Source: Roseateles toxinivorans (GTDB taxonomy: Bacteria; Pseudomonadota; Gammaproteobacteria; Burkholderiales; Burkholderiaceae_C). From it: a stretch of 55,969 nucleotides of DNA. Both the position numbers and the translations under genes were made by a program. The notes beneath the pieces were generated by a model. The model saw nothing but the letters and a program-made list of their open reading frames with translations, was not told where the DNA came from and did not search any database. Positions 2,126 to 22,095 of the stretch are shown in pieces (position 1 is the first letter of the stretch; the number at the start of each line of letters is the position of its first letter). The stretch spans positions 1 through 55,969 of the forward strand of contig CAMDHE010000014.1 of assembly GCA_945898095.1 (NCBI GenBank), in the 5' to 3' direction.

Positions 2126-2566
2126 TCAAGTGCGAGCAGTTGTCTGCTGTTTCAGCAGCGGCAGTCGTGCGAGCAGGTCGTCCGCGAGCGCGCGGGCATC
2201 TCCGAATGGCGAAGGCCGCGCGACGTACCGCATTCGCCCCTCCGCCACCAGCCGCCGCTCGCGCAACAGACTCATCTCAAAAGCGAGCGTGAATTCCTGT
2301 GGCTGCTGTTCTTCGAGCCGTGCCGACACTTCGATCTCGTCGTCATAGTCCAGCGCCCGGTGCAACTGGGTCATGACGGCGCACTCGCGCAATGGGCCGC
2401 CCTTGGCCGTCAACGCTCGCAGATCGATGTCGACGCTACGCAAGGCGGCTGCTGCGGCCTCGCTGAAGTAGGTCACGCAACTCGCCATGGACAACTCGCC
2501 ATGGGCATCGCACTCGGCGTACCGCACGCGAGCGCGAAAGACCTTGTTGCCCGAGTCTGGGTTCAT
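2126..2566 (-). CDS. Acyl-CoA thioesterase, hotdog fold (4HBT/FcbC-like)
   Basis: 146 residues. The N-terminus FRARVRYAECDAHGELSMAS matches 4-hydroxybenzoyl-CoA-thioesterase-like hotdog proteins, whose catalytic Asp lies in the YxxxDxxG segment. It would hydrolyse an acyl- or aroyl-CoA in the cytoplasm. ATG 2566 was chosen over a longer frame: it sits in an ATGA overlap with the upstream amidohydrolase stop (2563-2565) and is preceded by GGAGAAAG inside that gene. It is the last enzyme gene of the long run and one of two hotdog thioesterases in it, presumably acting on CoA esters made by the AMP-forming ligase. Confidence 0.8.
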   Translation of the reverse strand: MNPDSGNKVFRARVRYAECDAHGELSMASCVTYFSEAAAAALRSVDIDLRALTAKGGPLRECAVMTQLHRALDYDDEIEVSARLEEQQPQEFTLAFEMSLLRERRLVAEGRMRYVARPSPFGDARALADDLLARLPLLKQQTTART

Positions 2567-3888
2567 GAGCTTTCTCCTGCGGGGGTGTGCCAAGTTCCAG
2601 CGGTCGCCACGCCACGTACGTTCGAGAGCGCCGCCAAATCGCTCGTCGCGCTGCCCTCGATCAACACCAGGTCGGCGCGCTGGCCCTCAATGATCTGGCC
2701 CTGCCGCCCGCGCAGTCCGAGGTACTCGGCGGCATTGGCAGTGGCCGTCTGCAGCGCGCGCAATGGTGAAAGGCCCGCCTGCACCATCAACTGCAGTTCG
2801 CGGTGCAGGGACTGGCCGGGGATCAGTCCGCAGCCAGGGCAGTCGCTGCCGGCAAGCAGCCGCGCGCCACTTTGATCCATCGCCGCGAGCAACTGCTGGC
2901 GCAAGGGAAGGCCTTCAGCGATCGCTGCCAACGCGGCAGGGCTGAAGACCGAACGCAAGTCGGTCTGATCGGTCGTCGCCTCGATCCACGGCGCATCGGC
3001 TTTGTCACCGTTGATGCTGCGCGCCAAGGCTTCTTCGATCACCAGCGTAGGCACGTTCCAACTGCCCGCCTCGGCGGTGCGCTCGGCCAGCTCGCGCATG
3101 CGCGCCGGCGTGCTGTGCAGCCAGCCGACAAAACGCTCCTTCCCCGCGGGTTCACGCATATCGAGCGCGAAGTCGTAGGAGCGGAAGTGCTCGATCGAAT
3201 CCTGGCGCGCCGCCAGTGCCCCGAACAGGCCTTTGCCGAAAGGCACATGCCCAGCAACCGGCAGGCCCAGCTCGCGCGCGGTGGCCACGATTGCGTCGTA
3301 GATTTCGGGGTCGAGATCGTTGTAGACCTTGATGAAGTCGTAGCCGGCAGCGGCCTGGGCGTGTACTTCGGCACGGCCTTGCTCGGCACTCGTCACGAGC
3401 TTGCCGAAGGCCGCCATGGCGGGGAAGGTGAAGCGCGTCTCGAGGATCGGCCCCGCGGTGACGATGCGCGGCCCGGCGATTCGGCCGGCGTTGACGGCAT
3501 CGCGCACCCTCAGATGCCACGGTGTGCCGGCCATGTTGCGCACCGTCGTGAGTCCGGCGTCGAGCAGACGCTTCAGGTAGGCCTCGGCCTGCGCCCAGGC
3601 ACTGGCTTCGTCGGGAACGCCTTCGGCCGGGTCGATGCCGCTCGGCAGCAGGTGGACATGCATGTCGCACAGGCCAGGCAACAGCGTACAAGCGCTGCCG
3701 TCGATGCGTGTCGCGTCGGCGGGTGCCGGCAGCAGCGCGCTCGGGCCCAGTCGTTCGATGCGGCCGTTGCGCACGAGCACGGTGTGGTCCTGCAGCACTT
3801 CGTTGCCGCGCAGGGTTGCTACGCGGGTGTGTTCGATCGCCAGGGGCAAGGATGGGGTCATGGGTGGTGCGACGTTGGGGAACAGCAT
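2563..3888 (-). CDS. Amidohydrolase, imidazolonepropionase/prolidase-like (AH1)
   Basis: 441 residues, cytoplasmic by appearance. Metal-site motifs are complete: HxH at H77/H79 (DMHVHLLPSG), a lysine positioned for carbamylation at K187 (FIKVYNDL), H214 (AGHVPFG), H234 (SIEHFRSYD) and D349 (AGSDCPGCG). This is the binuclear pattern of the amidohydrolase branch containing prolidase-like and ochratoxin-type amide hydrolases. The ATG at 3888 shares its first base with the last base of the upstream VOC stop (TGATG); a longer reading frame exists but enters the VOC gene. Unlike the two paralogues at 13.7 and 16.8 kb it has no N-terminal CCPxH extension. Substrate unknown; hydrolysis of an amide or ester is inferred. 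Confidence 0.85.
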   Translation of the reverse strand: MLFPNVAPPMTPSLPLAIEHTRVATLRGNEVLQDHTVLVRNGRIERLGPSALLPAPADATRIDGSACTLLPGLCDMHVHLLPSGIDPAEGVPDEASAWAQAEAYLKRLLDAGLTTVRNMAGTPWHLRVRDAVNAGRIAGPRIVTAGPILETRFTFPAMAAFGKLVTSAEQGRAEVHAQAAAGYDFIKVYNDLDPEIYDAIVATARELGLPVAGHVPFGKGLFGALAARQDSIEHFRSYDFALDMREPAGKERFVGWLHSTPARMRELAERTAEAGSWNVPTLVIEEALARSINGDKADAPWIEATTDQTDLRSVFSPAALAAIAEGLPLRQQLLAAMDQSGARLLAGSDCPGCGLIPGQSLHRELQLMVQAGLSPLRALQTATANAAEYLGLRGRQGQIIEGQRADLVLIEGSATSDLAALSNVRGVATAGTWHTPAGESS

Positions 3889-4538
3889 CAGAACAAGCCT
3901 TGGGCGCCGCCGATGAGCGTGCTCACTTGTTCGCCGTGGGCCAGCGTGGCCACGATGGCGCGCTGGGGGCCGTGGTGCACGGCGATGTCCAGGCCGATCG
4001 CGCGGTAGATCGCGCGCAGGCCCTCCGGTTGCGGGTGAGTGACGAGCAAGCTGCGGAGGTGGGCGCCCTGCGCCGACGTTAGGCTGGGATGCGGGGTGTC
4101 TTGCCAATCGATCGCGAAGGGCACCAGTCCGGCGTACAGCGGATGCAGCAGATAGAGGCTGCGCCAGCGCAGCACGGCGCCGGATGGCGTGGCGCGGGCA
4201 CCGCTCATCGGCGCAGGCACTTCCAGTCCCGCCGCCAACGCTCGTTGTGACACAGCCTCGAGGTCGCGCGAAGCAACCGCAAACGTCCAGATATCGAACA
4301 GGCTCACGGCGGCAGCTCGGTGGCCGATCGCGTCAAGTCGTTTGGCCTTCGGATCAGGACCTAACAGCTCCAGGTAGCGCCCGCTGCCCAGCGACAACAA
4401 GGTGTTGCAGGTGCCGTGGTCGGGGTGCGAGCCGCCGACGGTGGGCGTGACGCCCAGTGCTGCGCCGAGCTCTGCGCTGCCCACCTGCACGTCGGGCACG
4501 ACGCACACCAAGTGATCCAGGGTCACGGTCTCATGCAT
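3888..4538 (-). CDS. VOC/glyoxalase-like domain protein (VOC1)
   Basis: 216 residues. It opens with a beta-alpha-beta VOC start (LDHLVCVVPDVQVGSAELGAALG) followed by SHPDHGTCNTLLSLGSGRYLELLG, the Glyoxalase_3-like pattern with candidate metal ligands at the first His and at YLELLG. Members can be isomerases, lyases, dioxygenases or binding proteins, so the reaction is open. The ATG at 4538 overlaps the end of the ligase gene by 8 nt. Its stop overlaps the start of AH1, so it is translationally coupled on both sides. It is shorter than the two other VOC proteins of the run (289 and 299 residues). Confidence 0.75.
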   Translation of the reverse strand: MHETVTLDHLVCVVPDVQVGSAELGAALGVTPTVGGSHPDHGTCNTLLSLGSGRYLELLGPDPKAKRLDAIGHRAAAVSLFDIWTFAVASRDLEAVSQRALAAGLEVPAPMSGARATPSGAVLRWRSLYLLHPLYAGLVPFAIDWQDTPHPSLTSAQGAHLRSLLVTHPQPEGLRAIYRAIGLDIAVHHGPQRAIVATLAHGEQVSTLIGGAQGLF

Positions 4539-6132
4539 CGTCAATGTCCGTCGGTGGGAGGAAGAGGGTCTGGCAAGCAGCCCACGTCGCCGCAGCCAGC
4601 TGCACCGCGCGCGCCTTTAGCGCGTGCCGGTCGATCTTGTTGGTGCCTGCGAGCGGCATCTGCTCGATGAACCAAACCCGGCGCGGGTGCATGTAGGGCG
4701 CGGCCAGCGCCAGCACATGGTCCTTCAGTTCTTGCTCGGTGGGCGCCGAACCGGGCCGTGACACCACAAAGGCCACCGGCATGTGCCCACGCAGCTCGTC
4801 GGCCAGCGGCACTACGCAGACCTCCAGCACATCGGGGTGGCGCTCGAGCAGGCGTTCGACCTGGCCGGGATAGATGTTCTCGCCGGCGCAAACGAACATG
4901 TCGTCGTCGCGGCCGATGAAGTAGTACCAGCCATCGGCATCGCGCCCCATGATGTCGCCGGTGTGGATCCAGCCATCGCGCAGCCGCTCAGCGGTGAGTT
5001 CGGGCAGGTTCTGGTAGCCGCTCATTCGCGTGGCGCAATGCACTTCGAGCACGCCTTGCTCGTCGACTTCCTGGCCCTTGCCGTTCACGAGCCGGAGCCT
5101 GGCGTGCGGCTGCGCATGGCCGACCGACATGAAAGGGCGCGGTTTGCCTTGCGGATGCGCGCCGAAGTAGCCCGCCCCAGTCTCGGTCGTGCCGTAACTG
5201 TTGATGACGGCAGCGTCTGCAAACAACTGTTTCACCTGCGCCAACACCGTGGCCGACAGCGGCGCCGATCCGATGACCACCAGCTTCACGTTACTGAAGT
5301 CGGCCGCGGCCAGCGCGGATTGCTCCTGCGCCATCATCGCCGTCATCGTCGGCACTCCGGACAGCACGCTCACGCGATAACGCGACACTGCGTCGATGAA
5401 GCCACGCACTTCGAAGCGCGGCATCAACACGATGGCGCCCTGCAGCATGAAGACATAGGTCGTGTTGACGGTGGCGTTCATGTGGAACAGCGGTGCGGCC
5501 ACGATGGTCGGCCCGCTCGCCAGGCACTCGGCCATGAAGGGCGTGGCATAACCCGCCGCGATCAGCACCTGGCTGCTGTGCGACAGCAGGACGCCCTTGG
5601 GCCGCCCGGTGGAGCCTGAGGTGTAGAGCACAAGCGCCGTCTCGTCAGCAGTGGGCACAACTGATGTGAAGGGACCCGGGCAGGTGAAGGCCGTGAAGTC
5701 AGAGCCGTGCAACGCCACCACGCGGCCAAGCCCCGGCAGGCCCATGGCCACCGGCATCGCGGCCTCGTCGGCAAACATCAACTTCACGGCCGAGTTGGCA
5801 ACCATGTAAGCCAGCGTTTCGCTGCCGGCGCGTGGGTTCAGCGGCACGCTCACCAGACCGGCGCGCATCGTGCCCAGCATCACCGCCAGGGCATACGCCG
5901 AGTTGGCCGCCATCACGCCCACGCTGGCGCCGCGTTGCAGGCCGGCTGCCAGAAGGCCGCGCGCCACGGCGTTGATGAGTATGTCGAACTCGCCGTAGGA
6001 CCAGCGGCGTGGCTGCGCCGGGTCAGACAGATCTATCAGTGCTGTGGCTTGCGGGTCCAGCGATGCATCAAGCGTCAGGCCCAGGTTGGCGGGCAAGTCG
6101 GTGCGCTGGTCCAGCGGTAGCTCGTCGCTCAT
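4531..6132 (-). CDS. AMP-forming acyl-CoA ligase (ANL superfamily)
   Basis: 533 residues with the full ANL motif set: P-loop YTSGSTGRPKG (170-180), YGTTE (313-317), TGD (391-393) with GRDDDMFVCAGENIYPGQ (408-424), and the C-terminal catalytic lysine K499 in GTNKIDRHALK. These enzymes activate a carboxylate with ATP and transfer it to CoA. The start ATG overlaps the stop of the upstream thioesterase (ATGA, 6129-6132) and the end overlaps VOC1. It is the only CoA ligase in the run, so it probably activates the acid released by the hydrolases. The motif set fits medium/long-chain or aryl acids; exact specificity is not readable. Confidence 0.9.
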   Translation of the reverse strand: MSDELPLDQRTDLPANLGLTLDASLDPQATALIDLSDPAQPRRWSYGEFDILINAVARGLLAAGLQRGASVGVMAANSAYALAVMLGTMRAGLVSVPLNPRAGSETLAYMVANSAVKLMFADEAAMPVAMGLPGLGRVVALHGSDFTAFTCPGPFTSVVPTADETALVLYTSGSTGRPKGVLLSHSSQVLIAAGYATPFMAECLASGPTIVAAPLFHMNATVNTTYVFMLQGAIVLMPRFEVRGFIDAVSRYRVSVLSGVPTMTAMMAQEQSALAAADFSNVKLVVIGSAPLSATVLAQVKQLFADAAVINSYGTTETGAGYFGAHPQGKPRPFMSVGHAQPHARLRLVNGKGQEVDEQGVLEVHCATRMSGYQNLPELTAERLRDGWIHTGDIMGRDADGWYYFIGRDDDMFVCAGENIYPGQVERLLERHPDVLEVCVVPLADELRGHMPVAFVVSRPGSAPTEQELKDHVLALAAPYMHPRRVWFIEQMPLAGTNKIDRHALKARAVQLAAATWAACQTLFLPPTDIDDA

Positions 6133-6554
6133 TTGGCTGCCTCCATGAAGAAGCTGCCGCGGCCAGTGGCGACGAGCTTGCCTGTGCTGTCGAACACGTC
6201 CACGTCGGCCACACCCATGGTGCGGCCGGCACGGCGCACGATGCCCACCGCGTCGAGAAAAGGGCCGCCGGCGGGACGCAGGTAGTCGGTGCGAAAGTCG
6301 ATCGTGCCCGCACCCCGTCCGGCCACGGCGATGAGCGCCATGCAGCCTGCCGTATCAATCAGCGAAGCGATCGGCCCACCATGCCATTGGCCCGTGCCGG
6401 CACCACGCTCGAACTCGGGCTTGAAGGGCATGCGGAAGCTCACCCGCATCGCCTCGCGGTCCAGAGCCGTCACCTTCACGCCCGCGAACTTGATGAACGG
6501 CGACTCATCGCACTGCGCCTGCAGTGCGGCTACAAGATCCTGGTCAGCACTCAT
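6129..6554 (-). CDS. PaaI-like hotdog thioesterase
   Basis: 141 residues. GQWHGGPIASLIDTAGCMAL matches the HGG-x-IASLxD active-site stretch of PaaI-type acyl-CoA thioesterases (Asp acts as base or nucleophile, the HGG loop binds the thioester), followed by TIDFRTDYLRPAGG, another family block. It likely removes CoA from dead-end or intermediate acyl-CoAs. The start at 6554 was chosen from the ATGA overlap with the preceding oxidoreductase; a much longer open frame upstream is antisense-like composition. Its stop overlaps the ligase start, so thioesterase and ligase are translationally coupled. Confidence 0.85.
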   Translation of the reverse strand: MSADQDLVAALQAQCDESPFIKFAGVKVTALDREAMRVSFRMPFKPEFERGAGTGQWHGGPIASLIDTAGCMALIAVAGRGAGTIDFRTDYLRPAGGPFLDAVGIVRRAGRTMGVADVDVFDSTGKLVATGRGSFFMEAAK

Positions 6555-7585
6555 GGCGTCACCACGATCTTGCCAAACACCTCGCGCTCTTCCATCAGGC
6601 GCTCGGCTTCGCGAATCTGCTCCAGCGGCAACACCTTGTCGATCACCGGCAGCATGCGCTGGCTGCGCGCCAGCTCGATCAAAGCCGTGATGTCTTCGCG
6701 CCGCCAGCCGTTGCTGCCCATCAGCTTCAGCTCGAAGGTCCAGACATAGCGCACGTCGATCTGTTCGTCGTAGCCCGCTGTGGCGCCGCATGTGAGAAGC
6801 CGGCCGCCGACCTTCAGGCAGCGGATGCCCTCCTGCCAGGAGTTGCCGCCGGTGAAGTTGACCACCACGTCCACGCCGCCGCTGCCACTGATACGCGGCT
6901 TGCCGACTAGGGCGTGGGTGGCCTCCATCAGTTTGGCCGTTCGGTAGTTGATGACGTGGTCAGAACCGAGACCCTTGAGTCGCGCGGCCTTATCGTCGGA
7001 GCCGGCACAGGCAATCACAGTGGCGCCAGCCAGCTTGGCCAGCAATACGCAGGCCGTGCCGACACCGCCGGAGGCGCCGAGCACGAGCACGGTCTCGCCG
7101 GCTGTGACTTGCCCGATCGTCACCATCATGCGATGCGCAGTGGCATAAGCCAGGGGCAGGCTGGCGGCGACTTCGAAGCTCACGTCGTTGGGCAGCTTCA
7201 CCAACTGCGGCGCGTAGACCACGCAGTACTCTGCGCGGCCGCCGTCGTACATCTCGCCGATCATGCCTTTGGGGGCGCCTTCGCCTGAAAGCGGCAACGG
7301 ATCGACCATCACGCGCTCGCCGACCGAAAAGCCGCTGACGCCGGCGCCGATTTCGGCAATCTCGCCAGCGATGTCCGAGCCGATGATGATGGGCAGCGGC
7401 ACCTTGATGCCGGGCATGCTGCGGCGGGTGAAGATGTCGTGGTAGTTCAACGAGCAGGCCCGCACGCGCAGCAGCACATGGCCTGGCTTGACCGACGGGC
7501 GCGGGTAGGTCGGCTCGAAGGCGGTGGCCTCGGGGCCGCCGTGGGCTCGCACAACAGCGGCGCGCATCGTGTTTGGAAGACTCAT
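6551..7585 (-). CDS. MDR-superfamily (quinone oxidoreductase-like) NAD(P)H-dependent dehydrogenase
   Basis: 344 residues. The N-terminal GroES-like domain has VLLRVRACSLNYHDIFTRRS, and the Rossmann domain has VLVLGASGGVGTACVLLAKLAGA (about 160-185). Structural-zinc cysteines and the usual catalytic Cys are not apparent, which places it with zinc-independent quinone oxidoreductase or enoyl/crotonyl reductases. It probably reduces or oxidises an intermediate, possibly a CoA ester given its neighbours. The ATG lies 4 nt after the cupin stop, with GAAAG upstream inside that stop region. Confidence 0.85.
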   Translation of the reverse strand: MSLPNTMRAAVVRAHGGPEATAFEPTYPRPSVKPGHVLLRVRACSLNYHDIFTRRSMPGIKVPLPIIIGSDIAGEIAEIGAGVSGFSVGERVMVDPLPLSGEGAPKGMIGEMYDGGRAEYCVVYAPQLVKLPNDVSFEVAASLPLAYATAHRMMVTIGQVTAGETVLVLGASGGVGTACVLLAKLAGATVIACAGSDDKAARLKGLGSDHVINYRTAKLMEATHALVGKPRISGSGGVDVVVNFTGGNSWQEGIRCLKVGGRLLTCGATAGYDEQIDVRYVWTFELKLMGSNGWRREDITALIELARSQRMLPVIDKVLPLEQIREAERLMEEREVFGKIVVTP

Positions 7586-7589
7586 GGGT

Positions 7590-8204
7590 TCAGCTTTCGT
7601 TGTGGGCGATGGCGATGCGCCGGCGCGTGCCGGCCTCGACGTCGTAGAGGTTGAAGTCGCTCATCGTTCGGCCGTACAGATGCAGGCTGACCGCACGCGG
7701 CCGCCCGGCAGGCACGCCGGTGATGTGGATGTGGTCCGGGTTGGGCACAAAGGTGCTCACGGCGCGCGGCGACTGCAGAACGACGCCGCCACGCGCCAGC
7801 GCGATGCCCTCGTCGCGACCGTCGTCGGCCGACAGGCGCACGAAGCTGCGCTCTTCGAGCACGCCTTCGACCACGCCGACGACGCCCCAACTGCCGTGGT
7901 CGTGCACCGGCGTCCACTGGCCGGGCAGCCACACCAGGGCGTAGAGCGACAGGCAGTTGTCCGGCGCGCAGTAGATCAGGTTGCGGGTGTAGTGGTCCGG
8001 ATCGCTGCGCAAGTGCGCCTCCTTCAGCACCTCGTCGGCGCACGCACTCAGCGCCATCATCAAGGGCGCGATGGCCAGTACCGCGTCCGACGGGTCCGCG
8101 TGCGCACGGCTGCGCGACAGCGCCTCGTCGATGAACTGGGCCAGGGCAGGGTGCGTTGCAGTGCCACTTTCGCGAATCGAGTCTTGGTGGTTGCGGTTGC
8201 TCAT
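7590..8204 (-). CDS. Cysteine-dioxygenase-like cupin (CDO type I family)
   Basis: 204 residues. LPGQWTPVHDHGSWGVVGVVEG gives the two iron ligands H101 and H103 of a cupin, with a third candidate His in PNPDHIHITG (158/160), the arrangement of thiol dioxygenases such as cysteine or 3-mercaptopropionate dioxygenase. They insert O2 into a thiol to give a sulfinate. The ATG at 8204 was selected because it has GAAGGG upstream and because the longer frame runs into the MFS gene. It is unusual to find this family between an MFS transporter and an MDR enzyme in a CoA-ester operon. A related non-thiol cupin activity remains possible. Confidence 0.75.
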   Translation of the reverse strand: MSNRNHQDSIRESGTATHPALAQFIDEALSRSRAHADPSDAVLAIAPLMMALSACADEVLKEAHLRSDPDHYTRNLIYCAPDNCLSLYALVWLPGQWTPVHDHGSWGVVGVVEGVLEERSFVRLSADDGRDEGIALARGGVVLQSPRAVSTFVPNPDHIHITGVPAGRPRAVSLHLYGRTMSDFNLYDVEAGTRRRIAIAHNES

Positions 8205-8218: not shown

Positions 8219-9601
8219 TCAAGCCGCTGCAGCTGCAGGCCAGGGGTCCAGGCCATCGGCTCGGCGATTCGACGCCACCAACCGCGCGTAGTGGCGTTCG
8301 CAGACGAAGAGCAGCACCACAGCCAACAGCAGCATCGCCAGGCTCACCAGCACCACGGCGTGCAGCAAGCCGGCAGGCGTGTCGGCGCCGAAGTGGTCTG
8401 ACAGCATGCCCACGGCGACGGGCGCTCCGGCTCGCACCGGAAGGATCACGATCACAAAGAGTGCGATCGTGCGGCCGACGAACGACATCGGCGCGATGCC
8501 CTGCATCATGGTGGGCGCCTGGGCCGCTGCCACGACGAGGACGGCAATTGCTATCGCCGTCAATGCCAGCAGGACGGGCTGGTTCGGCGCCCAGGCCATC
8601 AGCACTATCACGGGGATCACCGCCAGGGAGCCGTTGCGAACCATGCGAAGGCCAGCCACGGGATCGGGTGGCCCCTTGGTGCGGGCCGCCCACCACAGAC
8701 CCGCTGCAATGCCCACAGCGGTCGCCGCCATGCTGGCGCTGCCGAAGGCCACACCGGCGGCGCCGACCTCGCTGCCGAAGCTGCGGCTTAGCACGGCCGG
8801 GATCCAGATCACCAAGGTGAACCATCCCATGTTCATGGCTCCGAGGGCGGTAAAGATCAAGACGATGGATCCGCCGTGGGAGCGCAGGAAGTCGACGTAG
8901 CTCTGCGGGCCGGCGATCGGTGAAGCGGGGGCCGATGGCGAAGTTGCCAACGCCGCGACTGCGGCAATCGGGCGTAGCCTGACCAGCAGCAGCATCACCG
9001 CCACGACGGGCCCGGCCAGCCCGGCGATGAAAAAGATCAAGCGCCACGATTCACCGGCATCGCGCCAAGGCAGCGCAGCCCGGTTGGCAGATACCCATTC
9101 GTAGAGTGCGCCGCCCATTGCCAGGGCGACCCCGCTGCTCAACACGATCGACGAGTAGACCAGCAGGTTGGCCATCGCCAGCCGGCGCGCTGGCACCACC
9201 CGCGGCGTGACGGCGTAGATGATGGGAATCAGCGCGGCTTCGCCCACTGAAAGCACCACCATCGCCCACATCAGGGCATCGAAGTGGGGTGCCATGCCCG
9301 CGGCGTAGGTGGCAGCCGACCACACCACCACGCAGCTGGCCAGCACCCAGCGCCGGTCCAGTCGGTCTGACAGCCAACCGATCGGAAACGCAGCCAGTGC
9401 AGCGGCCACGGCGATCACCGAGCCTTGCAGTTGACCGATGTGCGAGTCCGTGAGCTTCAAGTCGGCACGCAAGGGCTGCACCAGCAAGGTCAACAGTTGA
9501 CTGGCGGCGATGCCCAGCACCATGACGGCGCAAAGCACCACCAGGCCATAGACCCACAGCCAGGGCGGCGCAGTCGAGTCACGGGCGTTTACTGTGTTCA
9601 T
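8219..9601 (-). CDS. MFS transporter, 12 TM segments
   Basis: 460 residues, strongly hydrophobic, with the MFS motif A variant GWLSDRLDRRWVL between TM2 and TM3 (around 75-87), a central cytoplasmic loop near 215-240, and a second half starting at IVLIFTALGAMNMGW. It would carry the substrate, or an amphiphilic breakdown product, across the inner membrane after TonB-dependent outer-membrane uptake. Its start shares an ATGA overlap with the stop of VOC2 (9598-9601), and the cupin starts 14 nt downstream. It most resembles the broad organic-acid/aromatic MFS branch; specificity unknown. Confidence 0.85.
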   Translation of the reverse strand: MNTVNARDSTAPPWLWVYGLVVLCAVMVLGIAASQLLTLLVQPLRADLKLTDSHIGQLQGSVIAVAAALAAFPIGWLSDRLDRRWVLASCVVVWSAATYAAGMAPHFDALMWAMVVLSVGEAALIPIIYAVTPRVVPARRLAMANLLVYSSIVLSSGVALAMGGALYEWVSANRAALPWRDAGESWRLIFFIAGLAGPVVAVMLLLVRLRPIAAVAALATSPSAPASPIAGPQSYVDFLRSHGGSIVLIFTALGAMNMGWFTLVIWIPAVLSRSFGSEVGAAGVAFGSASMAATAVGIAAGLWWAARTKGPPDPVAGLRMVRNGSLAVIPVIVLMAWAPNQPVLLALTAIAIAVLVVAAAQAPTMMQGIAPMSFVGRTIALFVIVILPVRAGAPVAVGMLSDHFGADTPAGLLHAVVLVSLAMLLLAVVLLFVCERHYARLVASNRRADGLDPWPAAAAA

Positions 9602-10467: not shown

Positions 10468-10479
10468 GGTCAATCTTCC

Positions 10480-11838: not shown

Positions 11839-11909
11839 GCGGTGGTCTTCCTGATGACGGGTGACGGCGGTGTGCAGCGTGGCAGCGGGCGTGCTTGGGG
11901 CCGGGGCGG

Positions 11910-15320: not shown

Positions 15321-16670
15321 TCAACGTGGGCTAAAGAGTTCGCGATAGAAGCGCAGCACGCGGTCCCAGGCCACGCGGCCCGCTTCGGCCGTGGCGCGCG
15401 GCTGGCCGCCGCAGGCCAGCGTGATCTTCGCCAGCGGGTGGTACAGCGAGGTACACATTGCCGTGGGCTGGCCCGGCGGCACCAGGTAGTGGCCCACGTT
15501 CTCGAAGGCCAGATGCTCGGCGCGGTGCGCCAGGCCGTGGCGGCGCAGGCGGTCGATGACACGGTCGCCGCCATAGGCGCTGGGCCACATCGCGTCTTCG
15601 CGGCCCGACAGCAGCAGCAGCGGCCCACCGCAGCGTTCCACCGGGATGCCGCAGCGCGCATCGGCATCCGCGCTGGCTGCGTCGCGTTGGTAGTCGGGCG
15701 TCACCGCGATGCCGTCGGGCGTGTGCACGGCCTCGGGTCCGCTCAGTGTCACGCGCACGTCGGCATAAAGCAGGGGCTGGCCGTCCAGCACCCAGCTGGG
15801 CCCCTCGTGCACGTTGCGCAGGTGGTCGAAGCCGGCCACCACGTTGTGGAAGGGCACCATGGCCACGCCGCCGCAGAACAGGTCGGGCCGGTAGGCCGCC
15901 AGCACGAGCGTCAGCTCGCCGCCGCGCGAGCCGCCCTGCACGGCGATGCGCTGCACGCCGAAATGCTGCCGCATCCACAGCGCGGCCTGCTCGAAGTAGG
16001 CCAGGTCGATGTGCTGCATCAGTTCGGGCCGGCCGGGCCAGGCGAAGGTGGCGGCGCTGAGCACCGGAATGCCGTGCGAGGCCAGCAGCGGCGCCCAGCT
16101 GTTCTCGACGCCGCCGCCCGAGCCGGTGAGCGACAGCACCGCACCGCGGGCTGGCGCGGCCCCAGGCGCGGGGTGGAAGGCCAGGCCGCGCACGGGGCCT
16201 TCGGCCAGCTCCTGCACGCGCACGCCCGGGCCCAGGCGCGTCTGGCTGAAGTGGCCTTCGGCCAGCACGCGGCCGCCGTCCAGCACGCGCAACGTGTGCC
16301 GGCGCGGCTGCAGCTTGTCGCCGCCGGGCTGGCCGGCCATGTGCATGAAGCTGCGGGCCTGGGCCATGAAGGCGGTGCGGTCGGCAACGCCCGCCGGGGC
16401 CATGGACCACAGCAGCCCGTCGCGGCTGGTGCCGTGGTAGCTGCCGCGGCGGCTGGGGGCGTCGGCAGTGTCGACCATGCCTGCGGCATCGGCACTCAAC
16501 TCGGCGCTGGCCAGCCAGCGCTGGCCGAAGTCGTCCACATGCTCGAGCTCGAGCGTGACGATCTGCCCCGGCGCCAGGCCGCTGGCGCACAAGGGCACCC
16601 AATCGCTGTACAGGTAGGGCTCGGGGTGCAGGTGGAGCGAGACGGGGGCGGCAGGAAGGACTGGATTCAT
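15321..16670 (-). CDS. BAAT-family hydrolase (BAAT2), paralogue of BAAT1
   Basis: 449 residues. N-terminal BAAT/thioester-hydrolase beta-sandwich, then LTGSGGGVE (181-189), nucleophile S248 in VQGGSRGGEL, acid D359 in SGREDAMWPS and H394 in NVGHYLVPP. The SRGGEL, DxMWPS and TGSGGG blocks are shared with BAAT1. Ser, not Cys, is the nucleophile. ATG 16670 was chosen; an in-frame TTG two codons upstream is possible. It lies between AH3 (104-nt gap containing a hairpin) and AH2 (18-nt gap). Amidohydrolase and BAAT genes alternate in this stretch, suggesting sequential hydrolysis of related bonds. Confidence 0.8.
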   Translation of the reverse strand: MNPVLPAAPVSLHLHPEPYLYSDWVPLCASGLAPGQIVTLELEHVDDFGQRWLASAELSADAAGMVDTADAPSRRGSYHGTSRDGLLWSMAPAGVADRTAFMAQARSFMHMAGQPGGDKLQPRRHTLRVLDGGRVLAEGHFSQTRLGPGVRVQELAEGPVRGLAFHPAPGAAPARGAVLSLTGSGGGVENSWAPLLASHGIPVLSAATFAWPGRPELMQHIDLAYFEQAALWMRQHFGVQRIAVQGGSRGGELTLVLAAYRPDLFCGGVAMVPFHNVVAGFDHLRNVHEGPSWVLDGQPLLYADVRVTLSGPEAVHTPDGIAVTPDYQRDAASADADARCGIPVERCGGPLLLLSGREDAMWPSAYGGDRVIDRLRRHGLAHRAEHLAFENVGHYLVPPGQPTAMCTSLYHPLAKITLACGGQPRATAEAGRVAWDRVLRFYRELFSPR

Positions 16671-16702
16671 CTTCAACTCATAGGGAACGGCGACAACCGT
16701 CT

Positions 16703-16774: not shown

Positions 16775-18376
16775 TCAGGCCGCCGCCGGAACGGGCATGC
16801 GCGCATAGATCGCCTTGGCCCGCTCCAGACCGCGCGCCATCGCGTCGCGGCTCAGGTAGGCATTGCCCAGCATCACGCCCTCGATCTGGCGTGTCGCGGC
16901 GATATCGCGGCTGGGGTCGGCGCGCAGCAGCACCAGGTCGCTGCGCTTGCCCACCTCCAGCGTGCCGGAGACGGCCGATTCGCCGTGGTGCGCCGCCGAC
17001 TCGACCGTGGCGCTGCGCAATGCCTCGAGCGGGCTCATGCCCACGTCGCGCACGTACATCTCGAGTTCGTCGTGCAGGCTGTGCTCGAGCGTGACGTTGC
17101 CGTTACCGAAGTCGGTGCCGGACACGAAGCGCACGCCTTCAGCGCGCAACGCCTGCATCATCAGAATCGAGTGCGCCAGGATGTCGGTGCCTTGGATCAC
17201 GAACTGCGGCTGGCTGCTGAACATCTGCACGATCGGACCGTTGGGCCGCATCAGGTAGCGCAGCATGGGGTCGAGCACGTTGGAAAAACTGATGTCGTTG
17301 CGCTGCCCGATGTCGTATTCGAAGACTCGGGACACCGACAGCGTGGGGCAAACCGTGACATTGCGTTCAGCAGCCAGCCTGGCCACGCGGGTCATGTGCT
17401 CGGCGCTGGCGCGCTCGGGCATCGGCAGGTTGGAGAACAACTCGATGACATGCGCCACGCCGCTCTGCCCACTGCGCAGCGCGTGGTCGACGCGCACCGC
17501 AGCCGGAATGTGGCCATTGACCTCGATGCCGAGCGCCTTGCACTCGGCCATCAGGCGGTCGTAGGCCTCCAGCGGCAGCCGGGTATAGGGCTTGGCGAAG
17601 TCGAAGCCCTTCTCTTTCATTCGCCGCGCCGCGGTGGCAGCGCCTTCGGTGTCGCCGACGGCATAGGTGATGTGCGTGCCCCAGACCACTGGGTAACCGT
17701 CGACTACCGGTGAGGCCACACGCATCGCCGGGCCACGCAGGCGGCCGTCGCGCACCGCAGCGCGCAGGGCCAGTTCCTCAGCGGAGCCGGACATGACCTG
17801 GATGCGGGTGGTGCCTCCGGCCAGGTAGAGGAAGAGCACCAGGTCGTAGGGCAGCTGTAACTGGCTGCCATCCACGCCCGGACCGAGAAGCTTGGACCAG
17901 GCGTTGCTCATACCGATCAGAACGGGATGCACGTGGTTGTCGGCCAAGCCCGGGATGGCGTGCAGGCCGGTCGCGTCGACCACGCGCGCGCCCTCGGGCA
18001 CCGTCGCCGCGCTGGGCTGGGTGCCGACGATCACGCCATCGCGCACCAGCAGGTCATGCGCGGGCAGCGGTCGGTCGTCGGTCATTGGCCACAGCGTCGC
18101 GTTGCGGATCACCAGCAGTCGGCCGGCTTCTATCACGTCGTACAGGTCGCGGGTGTTAGCGTCGCTGCGGCCCACCCAGTCGCTCACCTCCTGCGGTGTG
18201 CCGTCGAAGAAACTCGGCGGCGGCTCGCTGGGTGCAGCAGCCGGCGGCGCGGCGCCCATGCCCATCGGCAACATCATCGCCATGTGCATCGGGCAGCACA
18301 GCATCCGCCAACCATTGGCTGCCATGCGCGGCGCGTGGGGAACTTCGGCGTTCGACACGAAAGGTGTTATGTTCAT
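16775..18376 (-). CDS. Amidohydrolase with N-terminal CCPxH extension (AH3), first enzyme gene of the run
   Basis: 533 residues from ATG 18376 (537 from ATG 18388). Numbered from 18388: CCPMH at 31-35, HxH H152/H154 (DNHVHPVLIG), K266 (DFAKPYTRL), H293 (NGHIPAA), H313 (VAHVIELF), D427 (SGTDFGNG). An early Met/Pro/Ala-rich stretch (MAMMLPMGMGAAPPAAAP) follows the Cys motif. It is the closest relative of AH2 in the window. Neither start has a clear Shine-Dalgarno. If the TTGACA/TATGCT promoter at 18384-18411 is used, transcription would begin at about 18377, making the 18376 start nearly leaderless; the other promoter at 18575-18603 gives a ~190-nt leader. Confidence 0.8.
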   Translation of the reverse strand: MNITPFVSNAEVPHAPRMAANGWRMLCCPMHMAMMLPMGMGAAPPAAAPSEPPPSFFDGTPQEVSDWVGRSDANTRDLYDVIEAGRLLVIRNATLWPMTDDRPLPAHDLLVRDGVIVGTQPSAATVPEGARVVDATGLHAIPGLADNHVHPVLIGMSNAWSKLLGPGVDGSQLQLPYDLVLFLYLAGGTTRIQVMSGSAEELALRAAVRDGRLRGPAMRVASPVVDGYPVVWGTHITYAVGDTEGAATAARRMKEKGFDFAKPYTRLPLEAYDRLMAECKALGIEVNGHIPAAVRVDHALRSGQSGVAHVIELFSNLPMPERASAEHMTRVARLAAERNVTVCPTLSVSRVFEYDIGQRNDISFSNVLDPMLRYLMRPNGPIVQMFSSQPQFVIQGTDILAHSILMMQALRAEGVRFVSGTDFGNGNVTLEHSLHDELEMYVRDVGMSPLEALRSATVESAAHHGESAVSGTLEVGKRSDLVLLRADPSRDIAATRQIEGVMLGNAYLSRDAMARGLERAKAIYARMPVPAAA

Positions 18377-18383
18377 CCGCTGG

Positions 18384-18411
18384 AGCATATCAAATTTTAA
18401 CTATTTGTCAA
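18384..18411 (-). promoter_or_regulatory. Operator site 1 with overlapping promoter of the enzyme genes
   Basis: The 15-mer TTAACTATTTGTCAA (18397-18411 on +) is one of four copies of a palindrome. On the minus strand its arm supplies TTGACA (-35), and 16 nt on is TATGCT (-10, 18389-18384), just before AH3. A bound regulator here would block or touch RNA polymerase at the start of the enzyme genes. Promoter and binding are inferred from sequence only. Confidence 0.55.
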
Positions 18412-18941
18412 TTTTTGGCTTTCACTTCTTCGAGCGGAGAGGGCGATGCACTTCCATGCAGTCCGGCGTAACGCCGAATTCTCACTCTCCTATTGATCCG
18501 TGCGGAATCCTGGCGATTTTTGCATTTTTCGCATCACGTTTGGCTGCCATTCCGGGACCGTTTTCAGGTTACTTTGTATAGCCATTACTTGACTTAAAGT
18601 CAAATAATGATGAATGACGGTCACCGAGCCCAACCACTCCTCCCCTTCCGTAGAATGACGATCCGCCATGTCGCAGAGTTTCCGTACACCCCGGGTCGGC
18701 GCGGCCGCCCTTGTCGCTGGTTCTTCCCCGCGCCCGTTGCTCGCGCCGGCATCGGCTTGCTGGCGGTCGCTGGCGGTCCAGTCGGCTTAGACCATGCGCT
18801 GCGGGCCGTGAGTAGTGGTCAGCATCAGGTCGCAGCCGGTGCCATGCGCGTCAACTACTGCGTCCCCTCGGGCCCGACGGCGCGCGCTCTACCCAGGGTC
18901 GTCGTCACTGCGAACTGCCGCCAAACACGGCAGTCCATCCG
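18412..18941. other. 530-bp control/gene-poor region between regulator and AH3
   Basis: The left part is AT-richer and holds operator site 2. To its right, a plus-strand frame (18607-19059) starts 3 nt after that operator, and a shorter frame at 18667-18789 would encode 40 residues; neither resembles a known family. The frame at 18607 runs antisense into the regulator gene, and its composition does not look coding. I see no RNA gene or clear terminator. A short leader peptide or a decayed gene cannot be excluded. Confidence 0.4.
18575..18603 (-). promoter_or_regulatory. Operator site 2 with best promoter for the amidohydrolase-thioesterase run
   Basis: TTGACTTAAAGTCAA (18589-18603) is an almost perfect palindrome. 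On the minus strand it provides TTGACT as -35 (18603-18598), a 17-nt spacer and TATACA as -10 (18580-18575), the best sigma-70-like promoter in the block, pointing toward AH3. The operator covers the -35, which fits repression; an activator using class-II geometry is also possible. Confidence 0.6.
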
Positions 18942-19622
18942 TCAGCGTTGCCCAGGCGACAGCAGGGCACCATCGAGCTTGATCTTGCGCTGGGCATTGG
19001 TGTTGACCCAGCCCTGCACTACCAGCATCTCGGTGGCACCCGCGGGAAACCTGCCGTAGTGCGGCACCTCGCCCCGGTAGGTCATGGTGTCGCCCGCGCG
19101 AAGGTGGTACTCACGCTCACCGATGCACATCACGAGTTCTCCCTTGACGACATGGTCGATCCAGAAGCCGTCAAACTGCACTGGCTTCATGGTCTTGCAG
19201 CCCTTGGCAGCCCGCATGCGCAGCAGACGTATCTGCACGTCGGGCAGCTCCATGATGCCCAATTGTTCGATGTGCAGCAGGTCGTCCTCGTGCGGCTTCT
19301 GGGTGCCCTGGGGTTGACCGGCACGCACCACCACCGGCTCGATCAATCCGGCCGAACTGCCGAACAGGTCGCCCACTTCCACACCCAATGCGGCTGCCAA
19401 TGCAGCAAGCACCGGCAGCGAGGGGATGCGTTCGGCCGACTCGATCTTGGACAACATTGCACCCGAGATGCCCGCCGCGCTCGACAGGGTCACCCCGGTC
19501 ATGTTGCGATGGATGCGATGGCCGCGCAGCCTCGCACCGATTGCCTTACGGAGATTGGCAATCAGCGGCGAGCCCTCGTCTTCGTTCGGGTCATTCAGCG
19601 GTTCATCTCGACTTGCATCCAT
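18942..19622 (-). CDS. XRE-family regulator with C-terminal cupin domain
   Basis: 226 residues. A helix-turn-helix of XRE type spans about 25-85 (VTLSSAAGISGAMLSKIESA, then IPSLPVLAALAAALGVEVGDLF). A cupin_2 domain covers about 145-215 (IDHVVKGELVMCIGEREYHL, LRAGDTMTYRGEVPH). Such HTH-cupin proteins sense small organic ligands and control adjacent catabolic genes. ATG 19622 was chosen over a GTG nine codons upstream. It follows the TonB receptor by 29 nt on the same strand, so receptor and regulator share a transcript, and it stands just upstream of the enzyme genes. It is the obvious candidate to bind the four 15-bp palindromes. Confidence 0.85.
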   Translation of the reverse strand: MDASRDEPLNDPNEDEGSPLIANLRKAIGARLRGHRIHRNMTGVTLSSAAGISGAMLSKIESAERIPSLPVLAALAAALGVEVGDLFGSSAGLIEPVVVRAGQPQGTQKPHEDDLLHIEQLGIMELPDVQIRLLRMRAAKGCKTMKPVQFDGFWIDHVVKGELVMCIGEREYHLRAGDTMTYRGEVPHYGRFPAGATEMLVVQGWVNTNAQRKIKLDGALLSPGQR

Positions 19623-19651
19623 GACCCGATTGTCCACGACTCGCCCCACGC

Positions 19652-21907
19652 TCAGAACCGATAGGTTGCGACAACGCCCGTCGTGCGCGGACGGATCGAT
19701 CCCACGGTTTCAGGCGGAAGTGAGCTCTGGAACACGTAGGGCCGCGCGTTTGTGGCGTTATTGATGAACATCGTCAAGCTAAGGTCTCTAATGTCCACGC
19801 CGCCACGAAGGTCCAGGGCTGTGTAGCCGCCGAGCACGCGGTTGGCACCGGGACTCGTGCGGAAATCGCTGTTGTAGCTACCCACACGCTGCACGCTGCC
19901 ACCGACAAACGCAGGCAGGTTGCCGACGGCAAATGAGTAACGTGCCGTAGCGTTCGCCGTAATTTGTGGAATACCAACCACCCTCGTTCCCTTGGGCGTG
20001 ACGCGTTCTTGGACTGCAAAAGTCGCCGGATCCGTCACCGTGTCCAAGCCAATCACGTTCTTGTTGATCCGGGAGTCAACATAGCCGACGCCGGCCGACA
20101 CCAGCAACCCGGAAATCGGCCTTGCAGCCAGGTCAATCTCAAAGCCATTCACGTCGATGCCCGCACCAGGGTTGCGGCGACCCAGCGAGTCGACATAGGC
20201 GAAGCCCGTGGGGGCGAATACCGTCAGCTGCGGGTCCGTCCAGCGGGTCGTATAGACGGCTACGTTGAGGTTTACCCTGTTCGCCAGCCAGCTTGTCTTG
20301 GCGCCGGCCTCGTAGGTCCAGAGGCTGTCACTGCCCGCAAATGCCGGCTGCGTGAAGTTCAGGCCCGGCGGAACGAAGAGCGGGAAGTTCGTCTTGCCCA
20401 TGCGGAAGCCCTTGCTAGCTTGTGCGTAGTAGATGTCTCTGCCCACAGCATAGGAAACCGAGACATACGGCGTCACCGGCTTCTCACTAAGGCGGGCTAC
20501 TGCAGGAGAAGGGAAGCCGAATTGAATCAGCGTATTGCTGTCGTCGGATGTGTACTTCGTGTAGCGCAGCCCTGCATTCACGGTGAGGCCGTTGTCGAAC
20601 TTATAGCCGAGTTCGCCGAATGCGGCCGATTGCTTGCGGTCGGTGCTGCTTGCCGAGCCGAAGAAGTTGCCGATCACGGGCACCGGCGTTTCCCCATTGT
20701 TGATCGTTTTCTCGGTTGAGTAGAACAGGCCAGCCGACCAAGTCAAGCCAGTCTTCACATCGGGCGAGAGGAATCGGAACTCCTGCGCGAATACCTTGGA
20801 GTCGAACTCGCCAATCGTGCGGTAGATCTGGTTGGCGGGCAGCCCGAACCCGGGGCCGAATGGGCCAAAGAATCCCGTGTTGTCGGCGTCATACTTGGCA
20901 GTCTTGTCGAAGTACGACGTGGCCGAGACGAACTCAAATGCCGAACCGCTGTACTTCAGTGCCACGCTGCCTGCACTGAGCTTGTCGCTCCAGGGCTCAA
21001 GGATTGCAGTCGGCTTGGCCTGAAAGTCGGTGCCAGGAAGAAACAATGAACCGTTCCCGGCCTTGATGTCCTGCGAGTAGATCCGCCCCGACACGCTCCA
21101 CTGCGACGTGATCTGGCCGAACAGTGCGACTCGCACGCCTTCCGTGGTGACCTCATTGACATCCTTGCCAAGGGTCGGGTGGTCGACATAGCCGGCCTGC
21201 TTGTTGCGGTACGCCGTGATGCCCACTGCCATCTGGTCCTTCACAAGCGGCGTCGACACGCTGGCCACGAGTTCCTGGTTCCAGTCGCTTGCGCCCTGCG
21301 TCTTCGACAGACCCAGCCGAGCGGACCCTTCCATGGCAGTCAGGCTGGGGTTGCGCGTCTCGATCTTGATCGTGCCGCCCAACGCCGCCGAGCCGTACAG
21401 CGTGCTGCGCGGGCCACGGATCAGGATGATCTTGTCGATGTCGTACAGCGCCAGGTCCACATTGCCCGAGGCCTGCACCACGCTGGTCGGCAGTTCGTCG
21501 ATGTAGATCGCCACCGTTGATTGGGTGAGCGAGAACCCGGTGTCGGTGACCCCACGGATCGCAATGTTGCGGCTGACCGCGGTCGCGCCCTTGTTGATGA
21601 CGACGCCAGGCTCCCCTGGCAATGCTTCCTCCAACGAGGAAACACCTCTTTCCTCCAACTGGTCGCCAGTGATGGCCTTGACGGACATCGGTACTTGCTG
21701 GATGGGCTCCTTGCGCTTGTTTGCGGTCACCTGGACTCTCTGAAGTTCCTCGGGTTTCGCAGCTTCCTGCGCCGCCGCCATGGAGCACACACTCAAAGCG
21801 AGCGTGCTGGCAACAGCTTGTGCGATGTAATTCATCTTCGCAACGGCATGTCGCGCGTATGGCCCGCGAGGTGGAGAAACTGCTCGATAAAGCATGGGGG
21901 TCAACAT
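19652..21907 (-). CDS. TonB-dependent outer-membrane receptor
   Basis: 751 residues. The plug domain begins at QRVQVTANKRKEPIQQVPMS and includes IRGVTDTGFSLT and IDKIILIRGPRSTLYGSAAL, the classic LIRGPxxxLYGxxA block, followed by a beta-barrel ending in the typical aromatic C-terminus VVATYRF. It imports a large or scarce compound using TonB/ExbBD energy. ATG 21907 was selected because AGGAG lies 9 nt upstream. The conventional signal peptide (MNYIAQAVASTLALSVCSMAAAQ) starts 24 residues later at 21835, so either the signal is unusually long or that inner ATG is used. Barrel features resemble receptors linked to catabolic genes rather than to siderophores. Confidence 0.9.
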   Translation of the reverse strand: MLTPMLYRAVSPPRGPYARHAVAKMNYIAQAVASTLALSVCSMAAAQEAAKPEELQRVQVTANKRKEPIQQVPMSVKAITGDQLEERGVSSLEEALPGEPGVVINKGATAVSRNIAIRGVTDTGFSLTQSTVAIYIDELPTSVVQASGNVDLALYDIDKIILIRGPRSTLYGSAALGGTIKIETRNPSLTAMEGSARLGLSKTQGASDWNQELVASVSTPLVKDQMAVGITAYRNKQAGYVDHPTLGKDVNEVTTEGVRVALFGQITSQWSVSGRIYSQDIKAGNGSLFLPGTDFQAKPTAILEPWSDKLSAGSVALKYSGSAFEFVSATSYFDKTAKYDADNTGFFGPFGPGFGLPANQIYRTIGEFDSKVFAQEFRFLSPDVKTGLTWSAGLFYSTEKTINNGETPVPVIGNFFGSASSTDRKQSAAFGELGYKFDNGLTVNAGLRYTKYTSDDSNTLIQFGFPSPAVARLSEKPVTPYVSVSYAVGRDIYYAQASKGFRMGKTNFPLFVPPGLNFTQPAFAGSDSLWTYEAGAKTSWLANRVNLNVAVYTTRWTDPQLTVFAPTGFAYVDSLGRRNPGAGIDVNGFEIDLAARPISGLLVSAGVGYVDSRINKNVIGLDTVTDPATFAVQERVTPKGTRVVGIPQITANATARYSFAVGNLPAFVGGSVQRVGSYNSDFRTSPGANRVLGGYTALDLRGGVDIRDLSLTMFINNATNARPYVFQSSLPPETVGSIRPRTTGVVATYRF

Positions 21908-21967: not shown

Positions 21968-21996
21968 ATTCCATCAAAAAATTAACTATAAGTCAA
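21968..21996 (-). promoter_or_regulatory. Operator site 3 with overlapping promoter of the TonB receptor gene
   Basis: TTAACTATAAGTCAA (21982-21996). On the minus strand it gives TTGACT (-35, 21996-21991), a 17-nt spacer and TGGAAT (-10, 21973-21968), leaving a ~55-nt leader before the AGGAG/ATG of the receptor. The operator again contains the -35 hexamer. Confidence 0.6.
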
Positions 21997-22080
21997 TTAT
22001 TTTTCTAACGAATTTATGCTCTAAAACCCTTATTCTGCAATGAAAATTTGAATTTTTGTCAATTTCAATTACACATTTTA

Positions 22081-22095
22081 TTGACTTTTAGTTAA
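22081..22095. promoter_or_regulatory. Operator site 4 upstream of the TonB receptor gene
   Basis: TTGACTTTTAGTTAA, fourth copy of the palindrome, centred 99 bp upstream of site 3, with a half site TTTGTCAA between them (near 22055-22062). Paired sites about 100 bp apart mirror the paired sites upstream of AH3 (192 bp apart), compatible with looping or cooperative binding. The surrounding 21,960-22,110 is markedly AT-rich compared with the rest of the window. Confidence 0.55.

What the first reader, a model, noticed from the sequence alone, without database searches (positions are those of the whole stretch)
2126..22095. A ~20-kb, apparently co-regulated uptake-and-hydrolysis locus of unknown substrate
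Seventeen genes on one strand run from a TonB receptor through an XRE-cupin regulator, three amidohydrolases, two Ser-nucleophile BAAT enzymes, three VOC proteins, an esterase, an MFS transporter, a thiol-dioxygenase-like cupin, an MDR enzyme, two thioesterases and a CoA ligase. Many start codons overlap the preceding stop. The combination reads as a complete route: outer-membrane import, amide and ester hydrolysis, CoA activation and redox/lyase steps. No beta-oxidation set is included, so products probably feed core metabolism. I know of no described pathway with this exact composition. The substrate could be a lipid-like or amide/ester-linked natural product; that part is inference.
Basis: partly seen in the sequence, partly recalled or inferred. 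Interest (0 to 1): 0.8.

Follow-up and report, generated by a model that had tools for sequence, protein, structure and literature searches.

The report
Swappable-hydrolase natural-product catabolic gene cluster
A set of 17 neighbouring genes looks like a mobile kit for importing and eating a natural product, probably an acylated peptide; it recurs in a bacterium known for degrading cyanobacterial toxins, and its cutting enzymes have been exchanged as a block while uptake and later steps stayed the same.

Summary
In detail: 17 co-oriented genes, families largely as read. It is two units, not one operon: in both relatives receptor+regulator run divergently from the enzymes, and TTGAC-N5-GTCAA-like palindromes precede both. 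New here: receptor, regulator and downstream genes are 85-97% identical between window and R. toxinivorans, dS below that of rpoB; the hydrolase block (AH1 to BAAT2) is only 35-72%, whereas R. toxinivorans and G999 match there at 80-87%. The block was exchanged as a cassette. Relatives add a D-aminopeptidase and a D-amino acid dehydrogenase; G999 has a cysteine-desulfhydrase-like enzyme in the slot of an Arg-type cysteine-dioxygenase-like one. Best reading: import and catabolism of an acyl-bearing peptide natural product containing D-amino acids and cysteine; the substrate is inferred. R. toxinivorans 2C20 degrades microcystins and other peptides without mlr genes (PMC8068134, PMC5127115, passages); any role of this locus is untested.

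The parts
19652..21835 (-). TonB-dependent receptor (TBDR); ATG at 21835 with a signal-peptide-like N-terminus (read by eye); longest open start 21913
   Evidence: PF00593 104 bits, PF07715 66 bits; 90.5% to R. toxinivorans, 80.9% to G999
18942..19649 (-). XRE-family regulator with C-terminal cupin-like part
   Evidence: HTH_31/HTH_3 over cut-off, Cupin_2 below cut-off; 85.1% / 69.8% in relatives
16775..18388 (-). AH1 amidohydrolase with N-terminal CCPMH extension (exchanged cassette); a second ATG at 18376 may be the true start
   Evidence: PF01979; 67.8% to R. toxinivorans while R. toxinivorans-G999 is 83.6%
15321..16676 (-). BAAT1, acyl-CoA thioesterase/BAAT-type serine hydrolase (cassette); ATG at 16670; a RidA-family gene sits here in both relatives
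   Evidence: PF08840, PF04775; closest solved structures ACOT4/ACOT2
13680..15302 (-). AH2 amidohydrolase with N-terminal CCPLH extension (cassette)
   Evidence: PF01979/PF07969; best PDB hit bottromycin amidohydrolase 6i5s; metal-ligand pattern HxH, K, H, H, D invariant in 5 sequences
12797..13744 (-). VOC1, Glyoxalase_3 (cassette); likely start 13696
   Evidence: PF13468; about 35% to the relatives' VOC in this slot
11910..12800 (-). EST, siderophore-esterase-like serine esterase (cassette)
   Evidence: PF00756; closest PDB BES 2qm0, then fungal siderophore esterase and PfeE
10480..11865 (-). BAAT2 (cassette; exchange junction near its 3' end); ATG at 11838
   Evidence: PF08840, PF04775; after alignment column 450 the site pattern is W=R 11, R=G 0, against 214 R=G to 113 W=R over the whole gene
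9598..10473 (-). VOC2, Glyoxalase_3
   Evidence: PF13468; 89.7% / 79.3% in relatives
8219..9601 (-). MFS transporter
   Evidence: PF07690; 93.7% / 74.6%
7590..8204 (-). Cysteine-dioxygenase-family cupin, Arg-type by one residue (searches used 7590-8225, whose residue 81 is this Arg)
   Evidence: PF05995; R81 aligns with position 63 of A. vinelandii 3MDO 6xb9 (Gln63 is the mark of Gln-type enzymes, PMC8050391 passages); slot holds a Cds1-like enzyme in G999
6551..7585 (-). MDR oxidoreductase
   Evidence: PF00107/PF08240; 96.8% / 88.6%
6129..6554 (-). TE1, hotdog thioesterase (searches used 6129-6560)
   Evidence: PF03061, TIGR00369 70.4 bits over cut-off 36.6
4531..6132 (-). ACS, acyl-CoA ligase
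   Evidence: PF00501/PF13193; 93.4% / 85.7%
3888..4544 (-). VOC3, Glyoxalase_3; no match in the other two loci
   Evidence: PF13468; no VOC3 match (R. toxinivorans; G999); DNA homology to R. toxinivorans skips 3864-4587
2563..3888 (-). AH3 amidohydrolase (searches used 2563-3855)
   Evidence: PF01979 86.8 bits; 96.3% / 82.8%
2126..2593 (-). TE2, 4HBT_2-like thioesterase; ATG at 2566
   Evidence: PF13279 just below cut-off; 89.7% / 58.9%
1533..1930 (-). Frameshifted remnant of the response-regulator gene that precedes M55-DadA in R. toxinivorans; homology ends here
   Evidence: tblastn in two frames, 56 and 62%
18397..18603 (.). Two palindromes TTGAC-N5-GTCAA (18397-18411 one mismatch, 18589-18603 exact) upstream of AH1; a sigma-70-like pair at 18411-18384 overlaps the first and the annotated start
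21982..22095 (.). Three palindromes with one mismatch each (21982, 22048, 22081) upstream of the TBDR

Best explanation
A horizontally shared catabolic locus for a peptide-type natural product that carries an acyl chain, D-amino acids and cysteine (or a cysteine-like thiol). Shown: gene content, the same set in three genomes, similar palindromes before two units, and exchange of the hydrolase block (AH1 to BAAT2) as a cassette between a constant uptake unit (TBDR, XRE-cupin) and a constant downstream unit (VOC2 to TE2). Inferred: the receptor brings in the compound and the MFS protein moves it or its fragments across the inner membrane; the amidohydrolases, EST and BAAT enzymes cut amide, ester and thioester bonds; M55 and DadA (relatives only) take N-terminal D-residues; the Arg-type dioxygenase (in G999 a desulfhydrase) removes cysteine; ACS, MDR and thioesterases handle the released acyl part; XRE-cupin controls both units in response to a ligand. 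The cassette sets substrate range, the rest is generic.
For: Families of the 17 proteins. Same set in R. toxinivorans and G999. Window against R. toxinivorans, dS of 10 of 10 flank genes compared 0.10-0.41 and of 6 of 6 cassette genes 0.69-0.94, against 0.767 for the rpoB stretch of the same two genomes. Site patterns over three loci: flank W=R 1893, R=G 333; cassette W=R 618, R=G 1752; 9 of 9 flank genes and 6 of 6 cassette genes agree in direction. Cysteine: Arg-type residue and a Cds1-like protein (533 bits, cut-off 600) in the same slot between MFS and MDR in G999. D-amino acids: M55 and DadA-type genes downstream of TE2 in both relatives, 88.6% and 78.1% identical to each other; the R. 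toxinivorans DadA passes a D-amino acid dehydrogenase cut-off (389.5 against 383). Glycine C-acetyltransferase over its cut-off in G999. Palindrome: 5 of 5 window sites with at most one mismatch lie in the two promoter regions, 1.1 expected in 56 kb; the 2 exact sites in 40 kb of R. toxinivorans both lie in the divergent promoter region, 0.05 expected.
Against: No substrate or activity has been tested. M55, DadA and RidA are absent from the window's locus; its genome has two M55 hits elsewhere, one 34% like the cluster type and one a 52-residue fragment at a contig edge that gave no match at E 1e-8. Kbl and the desulfhydrase-like gene are in G999 only, and the latter scores below its curated cut-off. 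G999's M55 scores 123 bits against 430 for the DppA equivalog. M55 is not rare: 5 of 10 genomes examined match, 4 of them (one being R. toxinivorans itself) with copies outside such a locus (locus absence of two, VOC search). The RidA-family protein is below the TIGR00004 cut-off (86.2 against 106.25) and seems to lack the arginine typical of the deaminase (recalled, not tested). The palindrome was noticed by looking at the regions it is tested on; with two mismatches allowed the window count is ordinary (21, 6 of 100 shuffles reach it). BAATa and VOCa may not be strict orthologues across the cassette. Three loci are few.
Confidence: 0.45

Rival explanations
1. Catabolism of a non-peptidic polyketide or lipid with a single amide or ester link (mycotoxin-like, N-acyl amino acid); D-amino acid and cysteine genes are bystanders of the island.
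For: PDB relatives of AH2 include the amide hydrolase LlADH (9l6p; its ochratoxin activity is recalled) and ochratoxinase 4c5y (weak); ACS, MDR, two thioesterases and BAAT enzymes suit an acyl chain; in the window itself M55, DadA and RidA are missing; G783 carries a related ACS-VOC-TE-MDR set beside an ABC importer and a CoA-transferase.
Against: M55-DadA follow the locus in genomes of two families; two different enzyme families with cysteine-type substrates fill one slot.
Confidence: 0.25
2. Catabolism of a siderophore, for example a thiazoline (cysteine-derived) or trilactone type, imported by the TBDR.
For: EST is closest to siderophore esterases in the PDB; the only PDB match of the TBDR at E<=1e-10 is the FyuA pesticin receptor, residues 59-250, 46 bits; cysteine-type enzyme slot.
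Against: All 25 receptor models listed for the TBDR, siderophore ones included, are below cut-off; regulator is XRE-cupin type; four genes for acyl metabolism; no ferric reductase or Fe permease family among the 17.
Confidence: 0.12
3. A biosynthetic or tailoring cluster rather than catabolic.
For: The best PDB hit of AH2, bottromycin amidohydrolase, belongs to a biosynthetic pathway (recalled).
Against: No core synthase or carrier-protein family among the 17; a TBDR heads the set; amino-acid-degrading genes in relatives.
Confidence: 0.05
4. Chance neighbourhood of unrelated genes.
For: Only the sporadic distribution.
Against: The same genes in nearly the same order in three genomes of two families.
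Confidence: 0.01

Closest known systems
mlr microcystin pathway of sphingomonads (mlrA-D)
   Same: Bacterial uptake and hydrolysis of a D-amino-acid cyclic peptide is the job proposed here; R. toxinivorans, which carries this locus, degrades microcystins (PMC8068134, PMC5127115, passages).
   Different: No CPBP protease, MlrC or beta-lactamase family among the Pfam matches of the 17 (families of the Mlr proteins recalled); has TBDR, CoA ligase, VOC and BAAT genes not part of mlrA-D.
TonB-dependent catabolic loci with a local regulator (general type)
   Same: TBDR with its own regulator, hydrolases, inner-membrane transporter, CoA enzymes.
   Different: Hydrolase block exchanged as a cassette; this gene set did not turn up in the paper searches made.
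Bottromycin amidohydrolase and LlADH-type amidohydrolases
   Same: Same amidohydrolase family, 68 and 59 bits.
   Different: AH1/AH2 carry an N-terminal CCP(M/L)H extension, 6 of 6 sequences of three loci; apparently catabolic setting.
Cysteine dioxygenase / 3-mercaptopropionate dioxygenase
   Same: CDO_I family, histidine pattern aligned.
   Different: Best PDB matches are of the bacterial group with Gln at the key position, but here that residue is Arg.

Membership tests
mlr microcystin degradation cluster | MlrA-type CPBP protease, MlrC-type and beta-lactamase-type proteins in the locus | tested here: not met
   No such Pfam family among the 17. Whole genomes were not searched with mlr sequences.
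mlr microcystin degradation cluster | Degrades microcystin | not testable with these tools
   Known for R. toxinivorans as a strain (PMC8068134, PMC5127115 passages), not for this locus.
TonB-dependent catabolic locus | TBDR with plug and barrel, linked to regulator and hydrolases in conserved order | tested here: met
TonB-dependent catabolic locus | Co-regulation by the local regulator | tested here: inconclusive
   Similar palindromes before both units in three genomes (the two G999 sites have 1 and 2 mismatches); binding not tested
Siderophore utilisation locus | Receptor passes a siderophore-receptor model | tested here: not met
   TIGR01783 103.4 bits against cut-off 223.5; the other listed models also below cut-off
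Arg-type cysteine dioxygenase | CDO_I match, metal histidines, Arg at the position equivalent to Av3MDO Gln63 | tested here: met
   the R. toxinivorans copy has the same YTRN
Arg-type cysteine dioxygenase | Oxidises L-cysteine | not testable with these tools
   Needs an assay
Amidohydrolase superfamily (binuclear metal hydrolase) | HxH, lysine, two His, Asp metal ligands (pattern recalled) | tested here: met
   H143, H145, K257, H284, H304, D418 invariant in window AH1, AH2, AH3 and R. toxinivorans AH1, AH2

The most novel reading that the evidence does not exclude
The locus is the missing mlr-independent cyanopeptide route: the genes by which R. toxinivorans takes in and mineralises microcystins, nodularin or thiazoline cyanopeptides, with the hydrolase block as an exchangeable specificity cassette, so that bacteria re-target one uptake-and-catabolism chassis to different peptides by swapping a module of about 8 kb.
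Probability: 0.12. Interest if true: 0.85.

Novelty: new variant of a known kind. Interest (0 to 1): 0.55.

Why it matters
Natural-product catabolism genes are much less known than biosynthesis genes. This locus offers a natural experiment: one import and downstream chassis with two different hydrolase cassettes, which predicts two substrates that share building blocks. It also gives a short, ordered candidate list for the unresolved mlr-negative peptide degradation of R. toxinivorans, testable by single gene removals.

Tried and rejected
AH2 in the class sample: 8 of 369 genomes at E<=1e-20, own included; the 7 others have 25-41% identity and, in the roughly 4 kb held for each, no other gene of the set. 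BAAT1 in relatives: 5 of 59 genomes at E<=1e-20, own included; the 4 others 31-34% identical, again no other gene in about 4 kb. VOC1 relatives on plasmids (87 records): 3 contexts looked at, all different. VOC relatives in G1118, G1010, G404 and G871: no other member of the set in the 20 kb fetched. G783 has only an ACS-VOC-TE-MDR subset and part of VOC3. Plasmids: no near copy of the locus, AH3 none at 1e-40, TBDR one distant hit, BAAT1 10 distant hits, 3 looked at, one of them without annotation. MDR as a threonine-dehydrogenase partner of Kbl was considered; its best matches are an alcohol dehydrogenase, quinone oxidoreductases and enoyl reductases, so this was dropped. In one search the item L033:3272-3727 was one base out of frame; its empty result is void and was redone. 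In the first rpoB comparison one genome was read in a wrong frame; the values used are. Structure models were not obtained.
Full report
Observation. The minus strand of 2126-21913 encodes TBDR, XRE-cupin regulator, AH1, BAAT1, AH2, VOC1, EST, BAAT2, VOC2, MFS, CDO-like cupin, MDR, TE1, ACS, VOC3, AH3 and TE2, in this order of transcription. The genome is 4.71 Mb in 209 contigs and gives 32 matches to the receptor-barrel family. AH1/AH2, BAAT1/BAAT2 and VOC1/VOC2 are paralogue pairs of about 39, 39 and 48% identity, so part of the locus may have grown by duplication.

Recurrence. A scan of genome contigs with the AH1/AH2 alignment gave one relative among 232 pattern matches: Roseateles toxinivorans DSM 16998; the patterns were strict, so this is no census. 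The same contig appeared as G469/G800. Its locus has TBDR and XRE divergent from AH1, then a RidA-family gene, AH2, VOC, EST, two BAAT genes, VOC2, MFS, CDO, MDR, TE1, ACS, AH3, TE2, followed by a response regulator, an M55 D-aminopeptidase and DadA, with a tyrosine integrase about 4 kb further on. In the order sample 6 of 399 genomes had a VOC match at E<=1e-30, own included; of the 5 others one, G999 from another family, has the set in the R. toxinivorans order, plus glycine C-acetyltransferase between BAATb and VOC2, a Cds1-like desulfhydrase in the CDO slot, and M55 and a DAO-type dehydrogenase downstream; VOC3 is missing from both relatives. Elsewhere: own genus 1 of 18 genomes, own only (CDO); own family 3 of 399 with VOC2, of which own and R. 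toxinivorans have the set and G783 a subset; family of G999 1 of 64; genus of R. toxinivorans 1 of 3; phylum sample 1 of 398, own only (some genomes shared with earlier samples).

Mobility and mosaic. Between window and R. toxinivorans the rpoB stretch is 84.4% identical in DNA with dS 0.767. The 10 flank genes compared (TBDR, XRE, VOC2, MFS, CDO, MDR, TE1, ACS, AH3, TE2) have dS 0.10-0.41; the 6 cassette genes 0.69-0.94. Protein identities window/R. toxinivorans are 85.1-96.8% in these 10 flank genes and 35.2-72.3% in the 6 cassette genes; R. toxinivorans/G999 80.0-86.6% in the cassette and 56.8-87.8% in 9 flank genes. Counting aligned codon sites in three loci, 9 of 9 flank genes favour window with R. 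toxinivorans (1893 against 333 sites) and 6 of 6 cassette genes favour R. toxinivorans with G999 (1752 against 618); within BAAT2 the pattern turns at the 3' end. DNA homology of about 90% resumes at 18762, between AH1 and XRE. So the window carries a different hydrolase block in an otherwise shared locus; that the window's lineage is the one that changed is inferred from R. toxinivorans and G999 agreeing. The orientation of TBDR-XRE differs too, perhaps from the same event (inference). BAAT1 and VOC1 may not be orthologues of the genes they were compared with; AH1, AH2, EST and BAAT2 alone show the same pattern.

Regulation. The palindrome TTGAC-N5-GTCAA with at most one mismatch occurs 5 times in the 55,969-base window, all upstream of AH1 (18397, 18589) or TBDR (21982, 22048, 22081); 1.1 expected from 20 first-order Markov surrogates. 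With up to two mismatches there are 21, not unusual against 14.3 expected, 6 of 100 shuffles reaching it. In 40 kb of R. toxinivorans the two exact sites (0.05 expected) are both in the divergent TBDR/AH1 region; two further sites with one mismatch (710, 34258) lie outside it. In G999 the divergent region has sites with 1 and 2 mismatches, and another one-mismatch site lies at 13421. The motif was found by eye in these regions, so the test is not independent. A sigma-70-like pair overlaps the AH1-proximal palindrome and AH1's first ATG, which would move the start to 18376; for TBDR the scan gives only one weak pair. That XRE-cupin binds the sites is inference.

Chemistry. AH1, AH2 and AH3 keep the metal ligands; AH2 is nearest to bottromycin amidohydrolase and LlADH in the PDB. 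BAAT1 resembles ACOT2/4, EST siderophore esterases, ACS acyl/aryl-CoA ligases; VOC1 has no PDB match. The cupin has Arg at the position of Gln63 of A. vinelandii 3MDO, the residue that separates Gln-type from Arg-type enzymes (PMC8050391, passages); a desulfhydrase-like enzyme in the same slot of G999 suggests cysteine as an intermediate. M55 plus DadA suggest D-amino acids. No single known compound was fitted to all parts.

Link to cyanopeptides. Strain 2C20 of P. toxinivorans lacks mlr genes, opens microcystins at the Arg-Adda bond and degrades anabaenopeptins, aerucyclamides, cyclosporin A and other peptides; its authors suggested an undescribed hydrolase (PMC8068134, abstract and passages; mlr genotype also PMC5127115, passages). 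That 2C20 is DSM 16998 is recalled. The DSM 16998 genome has 5,748 genes (PMC10772561, passages), so co-occurrence alone is weak; hence 0.12 for the bold case. [quoted passage not shown] Paper searches: no paper holds four of Paucibacter, amidohydrolase, TonB, microcystin and gene cluster; searches listed 2, 5 and 1 papers, unrelated by title; of 53 papers for mlr-independent degradation 15 were listed and of these passages of two were read (PMC8068134, PMC6914704).

Noticed in passing
window 16775-18388 and 13680-15302, N-termini: AH1 and AH2 share an N-terminal extension with CCP(M/L)H, 6 of 6 sequences of three loci; possible metal site or partner contact, function unknown.
   Followed up: partly
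window 396-1142: GntR/FCD regulator on the + strand beyond the broken end of the locus.
   Followed up: no
window 22791-23529: ParD-like antitoxin and tRNA-Gly just upstream of the locus; could be an island edge.
   Followed up: no
L034/L035 (G783 C10): ACS-VOC-TE-MDR module beside a branched-chain-type ABC transporter, TctC and CoA-transferase III genes: a possible relative of the downstream module with another importer.
   Followed up: partly
L037, L038: Pantoea and Erwinia plasmids carry a shared set of TIGR04028 ABC importer, luciferase-like monooxygenase, alkylhydroperoxidase-domain protein and a distant VOC relative.
   Followed up: no
window 44873-45018: 146 bases 94.5% identical to the end of contig C43 of the same genome.
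   Followed up: no
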